A stretch of 64,000 bases of DNA from Xylaria sp. FL1777 (lineage: Eukaryota; Ascomycota; Sordariomycetes; Xylariales; Xylariaceae), in assembly GCA_022578965.1 (NCBI GenBank), contig MU400574.1, positions 62,001-126,000 on the forward strand, written 5' to 3'. Below, one piece after another: positions 23,443 through 60,506 of the stretch (positions are counted from its first letter, which is position 1; each line of letters opens with the position of its first letter). A program made the position numbers and the translations under genes. The notes beneath the pieces are model-generated. The model made no database searches and was not told the DNA's origin. It was given only the letters and a program-made list of their open reading frames with translations.

Positions 23443-23446
23443 ATGA
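23381..23446 (+). promoter_or_regulatory. Upstream ORF overlapping the Sec14-like start codon
   Basis: An ATG at 23381 opens a 21-codon frame that stops with TGA at 23444-23446. It overlaps the main ATG (23443-23445) as ATGA. If it is in the transcript, translation of the main frame would depend on leaky scanning or reinitiation. Confidence 0.4.
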
Positions 23447-59400: not shown

Positions 59401-60506
59401 CTTTGCGTCTGTATGTTTCTGCGTCTGTATGTTTTTAGGTCTGTATGTCTTTACATCTATATGTCTCATCTGCATGCATGTCTTAACTCAAACTACTCCC
59501 GAAACATGTCTCATGGAGCTAAGACTTCTCCCAAAATAGCAAATCAAGACTCCAGCGTGTTCGGTATGGAATGGATCGTCGTGGGCGCCCTGTCGGTTAC
59601 GTGCACGTCGCGCTGCATAAACCTGGGGCGCAGAGCCCGGAGACGCTAGAAAAGCTCGTTGTGCAAACGATCGAGACGGCACGCTGTTTGTTCACAACCC
59701 CACGGAACGAGTCGTTCTGTGTCGTGTTTGACCTAACTGGTTTCTCTTTGTCCAACATGGTACGGCTCAAACTTCATCCCTGCCTTGCCAAGGGAAGCTG
59801 ACTACCCACTGATACACATATGTTAGGAATGGCAACCTGTCAGGTTCATCATCCGTGCCTTTGAGGCCAACTATCCAGAATGTCTAGGCGCCTTGTTGAT
59901 CCACAATGCTCCGTGGCTTTTCTCCGGTGCGTTGCTCACTCATTCTACACATAATTTACCAAATTTAAGACTAAATCTGATGAAATTAAAGGAGTTTGGA
60001 AGATAATTCGTGGTCTGCTCGATCCAGTCGTTGCCGCCAAAGTAGATTTCACACGCAACGTTGAGGACCTAGAGAAATACATCCGAAAAGAAAACATCTT
60101 GTCTATGTTTGGCGGAACAGACGAATGGCGCTATGCGTACCAAGAGCCGGGAGAAGATGAAGACGCCAGCATATCACAGGGCTGCAACGAGCGTGAGAAG
60201 ATCATGGTCGAGCGCCAGGAGACCGCCGAGCGGTTTATGGCTGCGACTCAAGCGTGGATAAAACACGTAGGAGCCGGCGAGCACGAGGAGGCAGCAATCC
60301 AGGCACAACTACGCAGCAATGCTGTAGAGGCGCTATGGACGAACTATTGGAAGCTCGACCCATACGTTCGCTCGCGGACGAATCTGGACCGGACGGGCGT
60401 AATCGGGCCAGATGGCTCGATCGAGCTGTACCCTGAAAGGAAAGCTGCCGCGACTACGGACGATGGAACATCAACCACGAGGTTGCGGGGGCAGGGTAAT
60501 AGATAG
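23443..60506 (+). CDS. Sec14-like (CRAL-TRIO) lipid-transfer protein split by a ~35.5-kb AT-rich intron
   Basis: Likely binds and exchanges phosphatidylinositol or related lipids at membranes. Five exons: join(23443..23725, 23883..24100, 59556..59759, 59827..59926, 59992..60506), 439 residues. Exons 1-2 hold the N-terminal helical domain ('AFLLRFLRARKWDVG', 'FLEQLRMGK'). Exons 3-5 hold the lipid-binding fold ('GMDRRGRPVGYV', 'VVFDLTGFSLSNM', 'AFEANYPECLGALLIHNAPW', 'VWKIIRGLLDPVVAAKV') and the family's C terminus ('YWKLDPYVRSRTNLDRTGV'). The halves join after Lys167 in phase 0, donor GTATAT at 24101 and acceptor CCAG ending at 59555, giving the family spacing GK-x4-GxDxxGRP. Other introns are 157, 67 and 65 nt. 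No stop or frameshift exists in any exon. Either one huge intron is spliced, or the gene is broken: reading past the donor would add about 69 odd residues and stop at 24308. Exon identity is firm; expression as one protein is inference. Confidence 0.75.
25320..25680. repeat. Compound tandem repeat with little RIP
   Basis: Alternating shorter (~45 bp) and longer (~80-90 bp) units, each beginning ACCCAAAGGAA or a close variant, start near 25372, 25417, 25498, 25542 and 25631, for a joint period of about 126-133 bp. CCC, CCA and GG tracts survive, so this segment is younger or protected compared with its surroundings. Confidence 0.75.
25775..25848. repeat. TAA/TAG trinucleotide microsatellite
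   Basis: Runs of TAA interspersed with TAG and one TGG. Confidence 0.9.
26390..28290 (+). repeat. Left inverted arm with satellite-like monomers
   Basis: About 1.3 kb of degenerate ~70-80-bp monomers (motifs such as TAGCACTTTTAGTGCTTA and ATAATTAACTAATAAATGC) followed by ~0.6 kb of single-copy-like sequence. The same material appears as reverse complement at about 55,600-58,150. Matching landmarks include TTTACTAAATAAGCTTAA and TATTAGCTTTAAAACAT. Ends are approximate. Confidence 0.65.
28713..28930. repeat. TTA/TTG-rich trinucleotide tract
   Basis: Imperfect TTATTA, TTAGTA and TTGCTA repeats. The leucine-rich open frame across it is a by-product of the repeat. Confidence 0.8.
29580..29885. 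repeat. Degenerate ~60-bp tandem repeat
   Basis: Repeated variants of TCTTAGTTTATAGG/AAATGTTTTTTAGTTAATAGGTATATTA. Divergence is high and the limits are approximate. Confidence 0.5.
30239..30787 (+). pseudogene. Open frame with 31-residue tandem repeats, probable decayed repetitive gene
   Basis: An uninterrupted 182-codon frame from an ATG, long for this island. From about 30365 it repeats with a 93-bp period (marker CTAATTATAGTTATTA at 30369, 30471, 30564 and 30657, so 102, 93 and 93). Each unit encodes a version of NTNYSYYNNVKTLNLNK followed by AFNYKLVN. The high Tyr and Asn content is what His, Cys and Asp codons become under RIP. I do not recognise the original protein. Whether it is transcribed is unknown. 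Confidence 0.4.
32520..33127 (+). pseudogene. RIP-decayed array of C2H2 zinc fingers
   Basis: An 87-bp (29-codon) tandem unit, marked by GAACGCTT or close variants at 32693, 32780, 32867, 32954 and 33041, with at least one more unit upstream. In this frame each unit reads like KERLYCCNKYNLTF...LKANLN..I.AIYF. That is a C2H2 finger with linker in which the second Cys and both His are now Tyr (TGY to TAY, CAY to TAY), the changes RIP makes. One unit keeps Cys (AATAAATGTAAT near 33060). Stops interrupt several units. It was probably a multi-finger protein of a transposon or repeat family. Function is lost. Confidence 0.65.
35420..35635. repeat. Short tandem repeats (GTTTTTAAAAGCAT and AAAAGTTAGCTA)
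   Basis: About 20-bp units of TTTTAAAGGCATATATT type, then 12-bp AAAAGTTAGCTA units. The open frame 35319-35546 results from these repeats. Confidence 0.6.
37000..37860. repeat. Weakly mutated patch with ~225-bp direct repeat
   Basis: GC is higher here than in the surrounding island. A segment beginning TGGATGAGCTCTGGTCTTAA at 37481 recurs at 37706 with few differences for about 100 bp. Shorter TTGGTAAGGTYATTATT units lie between the copies. TGG and TGA triplets survive, so the patch is less RIP-mutated. Confidence 0.65.
38500..39195. repeat. GC-richer patch resembling a solo LTR
   Basis: About 0.7 kb with near-normal composition. It has TGTGAGACATTTAGC near 38732, a TATATAA box near 38933 and AATAAA near 39176, an order that recalls an LTR. 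I could not find convincing target-site duplications or matching LTR ends. It also contains TAGGTAGGT motifs like those in the euchromatic intergenic regions. Confidence 0.35.
39196..39495. repeat. 19-20-bp minisatellite (GCTAATTAGTTAAAA..GC)
   Basis: About 15 units of GCTAATTAGTTAAAAAGCAA or GCTAATTAGTTAAAATTGC. The left-most units keep more G and C, so decay increases to the right. Confidence 0.9.
39570..39645. repeat. TATTATATATTATG microsatellite
   Basis: Imperfect repeats of ATATTATATATTATGTATT. Confidence 0.8.
39880..40240. repeat. Large imperfect palindrome
   Basis: The left half repeats ATTATTAAAGCAC; the right half repeats its complement GTGTTTTAATAAT. The centre is near 40,090 (ACTGTTATTAG..ACTAACAGT). 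It could fold into a long hairpin or be two repeats facing each other. Confidence 0.6.
41180..41290. repeat. ~18-bp tandem repeat (AAAACATTAATTACT)
   Basis: Six to seven units of ATTAATTAYTAAAACRTTA. Confidence 0.85.
42600..42765. repeat. A-rich CAAAA repeat tract
   Basis: Strand-biased runs of ACAAAAGCAATA and ACAAAAATA over about 160 bp; almost no T-rich counterpart. Confidence 0.7.
44775..45115. repeat. 120-bp tandem repeat, about 2.8 copies
   Basis: GCTAGTAAAAGCTATAATAA at 44881 recurs as GCTAATAAAAGCTATAATAA at 45001, exactly 120 bp apart. A more diverged partial copy precedes them and a truncated one follows. Confidence 0.9.
46215..46505. repeat. ~17-18-bp minisatellite next to the left LTR
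   Basis: About 16 units of TTAGTTTAGTTATATTAT or TTTATTTAGTTATATTGT, ending about 75 bp before the left LTR. Confidence 0.85.
46580..46781 (-). repeat. Left (3') LTR of the Gypsy-like element
   Basis: Begins near TAAGGTCTACTATAAGTAG and ends near TTTTTAGTTTATATT. It aligns along its whole length with 55078-55280, with only transitions and short indels visible. Confidence 0.7.
47375..47635 (-). pseudogene. Integrase C-terminal relic of the Gypsy-like element
   Basis: An 86-codon open frame with the pattern AAKxxYxxxKHKxxxFxxxxxVYLKL typical of Gypsy integrase tails. It is too short and decayed to be functional. Confidence 0.6.
55078..55280 (-). repeat. Right (5') LTR of the Gypsy-like element
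   Basis: Shares with the left LTR the blocks CTATAAGTAGTAAAGCAATT, ACGCAATTGCTTTAAGCATA and TAAATATAAAGT, in the same order and orientation. Confidence 0.7.
55600..58150 (-). repeat. Right inverted arm with satellite-like monomers
   Basis: Reverse-complement counterpart of 26,390-28,290. Units such as AAGCATTTATTAGTTAATTATATAAGC and AAGCACTAAAAGTGCTAAAAT fill 56,700-58,060. The inner part (55,630-55,980) matches the left arm's inner part. It contains an extra 80-bp repeat array not seen on the left. Confidence 0.65.
56195..56525. repeat. ~80-bp tandem repeat, about 4 copies
   Basis: Units contain AAGCACTTAAGTATACTAAAA, then CTATAGTTTATATACTAAAG, then CCTTTTAAAGAATTAAG. Confidence 0.85.
59377..59472. 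repeat. 16-bp minisatellite near the 3' end of the giant intron
   Basis: Six units of CTGTATGTCTCTGCGC with few changes, in sequence of normal composition. The open frames through it (59314-59649 and 59348-59539) are repeat artefacts. Confidence 0.9.

What the first reader, a model, noticed from the sequence alone, without database searches (positions are those of the whole stretch)
23443..60506. One Sec14-like gene spans a 35.5-kb AT-rich island: giant fungal intron or recent gene break
Two exons left of the island and three right of it join in phase 0 into a complete 439-residue CRAL-TRIO protein with family-typical spacing across the junction (GK-x4-GxDxxGRP). Fungal introns are normally below a few hundred nt. 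Despite a saturated RIP-like block between them, no exon has a stop, frameshift or visible RIP leakage. Either a huge intron is spliced and selection keeps the exons, or the insertion is so young that the halves have not decayed, which sits badly with how decayed the island is.
Basis: partly seen in the sequence, partly recalled or inferred. Interest (0 to 1): 0.9.

Follow-up and report, generated by a model that had tools for sequence, protein, structure and literature searches.

The report
Giant transposon splits a lipid-transfer gene
In the fungus Xylaria sp. FL1777 a 35-kb AT-rich repeat element with inverted ends, likely a transposon, sits inside an exon of a predicted Sec14-like lipid-transfer gene where a giant intron had been suspected; the same left end occurs at 22 other places in the genome, and the insertion has likely switched the gene off recently.

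Summary
The gene halves are real, but the "giant intron" is not. None of 116 homologues has the spliced product's RVRY. The island is a discrete 35,455-bp insertion (24111-59565) with terminal inverted repeats. Its left end recurs at 22 other places in the assembly, its right end at 21 others among those examined. Nine end pairs lie on one contig, 27-96 kb apart, and all nine hold the same middle sequence. Flanks show at most a 1-bp target duplication (target S^AT). A second copy splits an acyltransferase frame just as seamlessly. Twelve aligned copies differ by a median of 0.9% transversions but 10.9% transitions, and 41% of columns hold G or C in some copy: a young family, AT-mutated copy by copy, as repeat-induced point mutation (RIP) does. 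That removes the paradox of a decayed island between intact exons. The genome is Xylaria sp. FL1777, whose public annotation holds only the right half, from Met173. The mobilising enzyme is unknown: no Pfam domain was recognisable in the island.

The parts
23443..23725 (+). Exon 1 of the Sec14-like (CRAL-TRIO) gene, start codon at 23443
   Evidence: translation, Pfam CRAL_TRIO_N in the joined protein, orthologue alignment
23883..24110 (+). Exon 2, left part, up to the insertion point; its last codons read G-K-V-Y-I-(C)
   Evidence: frame continues past the claimed donor and fits orthologues
24101..24102 (+). Claimed intron donor GT; in fact the first two bases of the Val codon GTA
   Evidence: Val-Tyr-Ile-His fits the orthologue columns; the first of the four residues is Val in 25 of 116 homologues, 24 of them among the 26 best hits
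24111..59565 (+). 35,455-bp element copy inserted in the exon (the AT-rich island)
   Evidence: left end recurs at 22 other places, right end at 21 other examined places, with shared boundaries
24111..24162 (+). Left terminal inverted repeat (ACC...GCTGG...)
   Evidence: local alignment score 37 against a maximum of 25 in 500 shuffles; 37 of 53 columns identical to the right end
59514..59565 (-). Right terminal inverted repeat (...CCAGCGTGTTCGGT)
26403..27640 (+). Left subterminal repeat array, inverted relative to 57481-58060
57481..58060 (-). Right subterminal repeat array (inverted partner)
37001..38500 (+). Middle segment; matches to it lie in the same orientation between the two ends in 9 of 9 same-contig pairs
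46569..46860 (+). Direct repeat with 55068-55340, 8.5 kb apart; possibly ends of a nested element (not settled)
55068..55340 (+). Second copy of the 8.5-kb-spaced direct repeat
59566..59759 (+). Rest of the split exon (from AT-GGA-ATG); the public protein P0016 starts at this ATG (Met173)
59827..59926 (+). Next exon
59992..60506 (+). Last exon with stop codon

Best explanation
The island is one copy of a giant repeat family with terminal inverted repeats, likely a transposon, that lies inside an exon of the Sec14-like gene between the bases ATTC and ATGG, and it has likely inactivated that gene recently. Shown here: shared family ends, 22 further left-end places, a shared middle in nine of nine pairs, at most a 1-bp target duplication, and flanks that join into an intact 439-residue reading frame fitting orthologues. 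Also shown: in the 12 copies compared, transitions far outnumber transversions. Inferred: a recombinase or transposase recognised the inverted ends and placed the element at an S^AT target. Inferred: after dispersal each copy was saturated with C-to-T changes by RIP. Inferred: the gene now gives at most a truncated left product ending at the stop codon at 24308-24310, and perhaps a right product from Met173. The halves are intact, presumably because too little time has passed for them to decay.
For: Xylariaceae-type orthologues read GK-VY(I/L/F/M)(R/H)-G.DR.GRP in most of the 26 best hits, and the window's own frame reads GK-VYIH then GMDRRGRP. Left-end matches start at query positions 8-11 in 21 of 22 other places (C48 at 18); right-end matches stop at positions 208-212 in 20 of 21 other examined places (C232 at 196). 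Left ends: base -1 is C or G in 22 of 23. Right ends: base +1 is A in 21 of 22 and +2 is T in 18 of 22. Inverted repeats score 37 against a shuffle maximum of 25. 9 of 9 same-contig pairs carry the middle segment in the same orientation. A second pair (C26, 52 kb) joins into a 462-aa open frame with a TRI-like_N domain running across the junction. Two single ends abut frames whose domain stops or starts short at the boundary: Abhydrolase_1 (C36, from profile position 70) and PSDC (C6, to position 45 of 138). Copies differ by a median of 0.87% transversions against 10.9% transitions in 66 pairs. The public FL1777 protein holds only residues 173-439, and a search with the left half found no such protein of this genome. 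Contig C69 has 235,779 bases, exactly the contig length listed for P0016.
Against: No transposase or recombinase is recognisable: six frames of 24311-59560, X at stops, gave no Pfam family at E up to 0.1 (two frames at a 0.01 cut-off). A missing target duplication is unusual for cut-and-paste elements. No transcript, read or orthologue DNA was available, so loss of function is inferred. With outgroup P0002 the left half has 21 window-only against 7 Ustulina-only changes, but the right half 9 against 12; over the whole protein the counts with five outgroups run from 22:21 to 35:17, so relaxed constraint is neither uniform nor clear. Columns that still vary show no CpA bias (T followed by A in 540 of 1723 against a background of 43%), which is expected if CpA sites are exhausted but is no proof of RIP. 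Six of 20 aligned right ends do not align further inward, so the family is not uniform.
Confidence: 0.92

Rival explanations
1. A 35-kb spliceosomal intron: GT at 24101 and AG at 59555 are spliced, giving a working 439-residue protein.
For: Canonical GT and CAG; same phase; the product keeps the family spacing.
Against: The GT is a Val codon that fits orthologues; the product replaces VYIH by RVRY, seen in 0 of 116 homologues. Donor GTATATA lacks G at +5. [quoted passage not shown] An in-phase GT within 60 nt exists at 63% of positions. Public annotation starts the right half anew.
Confidence: 0.03
2. Giant introner: the transposon brings an AG 10 nt inside each end, so it can be spliced with a host GT and rescue the host gene.
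For: AG lies 10 nt inside 44 of 45 ends. In this copy the host GT is 10 nt upstream, so 10 nt lost equal 10 nt gained. Known introners can carry one splice site and recruit the other, and some have TIRs but no TSD (PMC9860276, passages seen).
Against: GT at distance 10 is not clearly enriched: 4 of 45 ends against a mean of 2.4 per distance. In the C26 copy the only GT within 60 nt is 49 nt upstream, so splicing there would delete the HHQTMDG stretch; the C7 flank has no in-phase GT within 60 nt, the C6 flank has one at 43. Introner families have median lengths of 30-654 nt.
Confidence: 0.04
3. Assembly artefact: two unrelated contig ends joined through an AT-rich stretch.
For: AT-rich repeats are hard to assemble; no reads are available to me.
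Against: The two flanks are halves of one gene in the right order, strand and phase. Both boundaries are family ends seen at many other loci.
Confidence: 0.02
4. A RIP-saturated Starship (tyrosine-recombinase giant element).
For: Size of 27-96 kb, terminal inverted repeats and minimal target duplication are compatible; Starships range from 15 to about 700 kb and sometimes have TIRs (PMC12134995, passages seen).
Against: No DUF3435 captain found: none of the 11 PF11917 matches in the assembly (10 candidates scored) lies on a contig where an end of this family was detected, although the same search found a captain remnant with 24 stops (C152). No domain in the island. No direct repeats beyond 1 bp.
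Confidence: 0.2

Closest known systems
Starship elements (DUF3435 captain, Pezizomycotina)
   Same: Tens of kilobases, ascomycete host, terminal inverted repeats in some
   Different: No captain detected, no cargo genes recognisable, some 20 or more copies of one family in one genome, AT-mutated inside the ends examined
TIR (DDE) cut-and-paste DNA transposons with subterminal repeats
   Same: About 50-bp inverted ends plus inverted subterminal arrays, dispersed copies
   Different: No 2-10 bp target-site duplication in any of 9 pairs; very large; no transposase domain found (hallmarks recalled, not from a call)
Helitrons
   Same: Insertion at an A-T dinucleotide with no target duplication is compatible with the flanks
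   Different: Has terminal inverted repeats; termini are not TC...CTRR (hallmarks recalled, not from a call)
Introners (intron-generating transposons)
   Same: Both ends carry an AG that could serve as acceptor; a host GT lies 10 nt upstream in this copy
   Different: Far longer than the 30-654 nt family medians; splicing would not rescue the C26 gene

Membership tests
Spliceosomal intron | GT...AG borders | tested here: met
   GTATAT...CCAG at 24101/59555, but such a match is common by chance
Spliceosomal intron | Borders fall outside conserved coding sequence | tested here: not met
   GTATATATTC encodes VYI(H), fitting orthologues
Spliceosomal intron | Spliced transcript | not testable with these tools
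   no RNA data
Giant TIR mobile element | Terminal inverted repeats | tested here: met
Giant TIR mobile element | Dispersed copies with shared boundaries in different flanks | tested here: met
   23 left and 22 right ends examined, this copy included; one right end (C232) lacks the last bases
DDE cut-and-paste transposon | Target-site duplication of 2-10 bp | tested here: not met
   at most 1 bp (A) in 9 of 9 pairs
DDE cut-and-paste transposon | Transposase | tested here: inconclusive
   no Pfam match in six frames, but AT mutation may hide it
Starship | DUF3435 captain at the 5' end | tested here: inconclusive
   not found, although a degraded captain elsewhere was detectable
Starship | Size of 15-700 kb | tested here: met
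   27-96 kb between paired ends
Starship | Flanking direct repeats | tested here: not met
   at most 1 bp
Helitron | TC start and CTRR end, no TIR | tested here: not met
   ends are [C/G/A]C...GGTA with TIRs
Helitron | Rep/helicase protein | tested here: inconclusive
   PF14214: 0 matches, but the control genomes were silent too
Introner | Copies spliced out as introns | not testable with these tools
   no RNA data; the C26 copy argues against it

The most novel reading that the evidence does not exclude
This is an undescribed superfamily of giant fungal mobile elements whose enzyme integrates seamlessly at S^AT. Because nothing is duplicated or lost, excision would restore the broken gene exactly, making each copy a reversible gene switch even after RIP has destroyed its interior while the ends stay usable.
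Probability: 0.2. Interest if true: 0.75.

Novelty: new variant of a known kind. Interest (0 to 1): 0.5.

Why it matters
It replaces an apparent record-size fungal intron by a clear case of gene breakage. It shows that a heavily AT-mutated island can be a young, sharply bounded element copy and not ancient debris. The terminal sequences give a handle for finding the family, its empty sites and its enzyme in other Xylaria genomes. Seamless insertion into exons makes the question of reversible gene splitting directly testable.

Tried and rejected
Giant intron: rejected on the Val codon, orthologue residues and family ends. Assembly chimera: rejected on recurring ends and matched gene halves. Starship: PF11917 search of the assembly gave 11 matches, none on a contig with a detected end of this family. 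Helitron_like_N: silent here and in the controls, so uninformative. Rfam on the window: 0 matches. Pfam on six read-through frames of 24311-59560: nothing at E up to 0.1; one weak match (PF17563, E 0.73) where the cut-off was 1. Gene preference: 8 of 46 ends abut an open frame of 100 aa or more against 26% of 392 control positions in the same flanks, so no enrichment (the C82 end is counted twice in the 46). Open frames beside C7 (323 aa) and C262 (140 aa) and across the C55 junction (78 aa) match no Pfam family; the C82 frame matches Cupin_8 from profile position 8, which does not show a cut. Nested LTR element to explain the 8 kb above the 27-29 kb of the shorter copies: a direct repeat 8.5 kb apart (233 same, 26 transitions, 13 transversions, 21 gap columns) has no clear LTR ends, so unsettled. 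A search for an inner segment (49001-50500) elsewhere and searches for KDZ and DDE_1 domains could not be run.

Papers: PMC5677156, PMC12134995, PMC9860276, PMC12403724, PMC10734572 and PMC12289983 were seen as passages only; other papers as search listings. I make no claim that this family is absent from print.
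Full report
What was checked. The window is contig C69:62001-126000 of a 58.7-Mb, 588-contig assembly.

Why it is not an intron. Across the junction, full-length relatives read GK-VYIR, VYLR, VYFR, VYIH or VYLH (and a few variants) followed by G.DR.GRP. Of the 120 homologues listed, 116 match the frame of this motif; the four residues before the glycine always fit [SVAGC][YF][LVIFMCA][HRY], and RVRY, which the spliced model needs, occurs in none (P0016, P0027, P0035 and P0089 did not match the pattern and were not counted). 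The window's own left exon reads straight on through the supposed donor as GTA TAT ATT C, that is Val-Tyr-Ile, and the right half supplies AT GGA ATG: joined without splicing they give GK-VYIH-GMDRRGRP and a 439-codon frame with only its terminal stop. The GT...AG coincidence is weak evidence: at 799 of 1260 positions in this gene an in-phase GT lies within 60 nt upstream. Paralogue matches on C89 and C47 run through this point without a break.

What the island is. Its two ends are inverted repeats (score 37, maximum of 500 shuffles 25; 37 of 53 columns identical). The left end recurs at 22 other places (25 rows, two of them this copy and two rows for one end on C128), all examined. The right end gave 42 rows: this copy, 21 other right ends that I examined, one row (C82) that is a left end, and 19 rows not examined. 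By position, ten of these 19 are cross-matches to known left ends and six are second pieces beside known ends, while three (C226, C135, C105) may be further ends. The tool calls such counts lower bounds. Boundaries are shared: left ...S|A[C/G/A]C, right ...CGTGTTCGGT|AT; one right end (C232) lacks the last bases and has AT-rich sequence outside. Nine end pairs lie on one contig: C69 35.5 kb, C2 27.4 and 58.2 kb, C70 29.2 kb, C109 28.2 kb, C55 28.5 kb, C48 33.9 kb, C26 52.2 kb and C32 96.5 kb (the last least certain as a pair). All nine hold a match to the middle segment of this island in the same orientation. Flank joining shows no target duplication beyond a single A. In C26 the join gives a 462-aa acyltransferase frame whose TRI-like_N domain spans the junction. 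Single ends abut an Abhydrolase_1 domain that starts at profile position 70 (C36) and a PSDC domain that stops at position 45 of 138 (C6), so these genes are probably split as well. Insertion is not enriched in long frames compared with nearby positions.

Age and decay. In the stretch 350-1600 bp inside the right end, this copy differs from C55 by 123 transitions and 13 transversions over 1205 aligned bases, and from C26 by 129 and 12 over 1203; the other nine of the 12 long-aligned copies show 55-94 transversions in that bin, partly where BLAST finds no alignment. In the stretch 700-1500 bp inside, the 66 pairs of 12 copies have medians of 10.9% transitions and 0.87% transversions, with two pairs at zero transversions. 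Twenty copies were aligned in that call. Eight were left out before the pairwise medians: six whose inner part does not align, one that is short, and one (L055) that aligns well and was left out without need. Of 1421 columns with at least 8 of 12 copies, 579 (41%) hold G or C in at least one copy, which suggests that the ancestor was not AT-rich there. Mean interior GC is 0.14-0.20 from 300 bp inwards, while flanks stay at 0.44-0.50 up to the boundary, and the outermost 100-200 bp of the element are intermediate. The natural reading is RIP of a young family, copy by copy, without visible leakage into the flanks. For this gene a random substitution makes a stop with probability 4.4%, so an intact frame allows up to about 69 neutral substitutions, 5% per site (95%). 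That fits the low transversion divergence.

State of the gene. The left frame runs into the element and stops at 24308-24310. The public annotation has only the right part from Met173, and a search with the left half found no FL1777 protein among 14 hits (only proteins of about 107-340 residues were candidates). Relative-rate counts against Ustulina deusta with Xylaria digitata as outgroup are 21 against 7 in the left half and 9 against 12 in the right half; over the whole protein five outgroups give 30:19, 35:17, 28:23, 22:21 and 28:21. So relaxation is neither uniform nor clear, and loss of function is likely, not shown.

Mechanism and class. Six frames of 24311-59560 with X at stops gave no Pfam family at E up to 0.1 (two frames of the left part at 0.01 only). 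DUF3435 remnants exist elsewhere in the genome, one with 24 stops, but none lies on a contig with a detected end of this family. A near-zero target duplication disfavours DDE enzymes and fits a recombinase or another traceless mechanism; this is inference. AG lies 10 nt inside 44 of 45 ends, which keeps an introner-like reading barely open; the C26 copy, where splicing would delete the HHQTMDG stretch, argues against it.

Limits. No reads, RNA or relatives' DNA. The whole-genome machine gave no answer from then on, so the nested 8.5-kb direct repeat, the interiors of other copies and further transposase families could not be followed.

Noticed in passing
window 11367-13541 (+): Long open frame with a DYDGD motif typical of quelling-type RNA-dependent RNA polymerases (motif recalled, no family search run), about 10 kb from the AT-mutated element.
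   Followed up: no
window 30433-30739 and 32661-33111: Tandem arrays of 93-bp and 87-bp units inside the element; the first lies in a 183-codon open frame despite about 19% GC.
   Followed up: no
window 46569-46860 and 55068-55340: Direct repeat 8.5 kb apart that could mark a nested insertion and explain the excess over the 27-29 kb of the shorter copies.
   Followed up: partly
G000:C26:39240-91437: A 52-kb copy of the same family splits an acyltransferase frame in its HHxxxDG region (motif recalled; domain).
   Followed up: partly
G000:C36:93908-94144 and C6:450820-450928: Family ends abut open frames with truncated Abhydrolase_1 and phosphatidylserine decarboxylase (PSDC) domains, so these genes are probably split as well.
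   Followed up: partly
G000:C152:9517-10596: DUF3435 match with 24 stops inside: probably a degraded Starship recombinase elsewhere in the genome.
   Followed up: no
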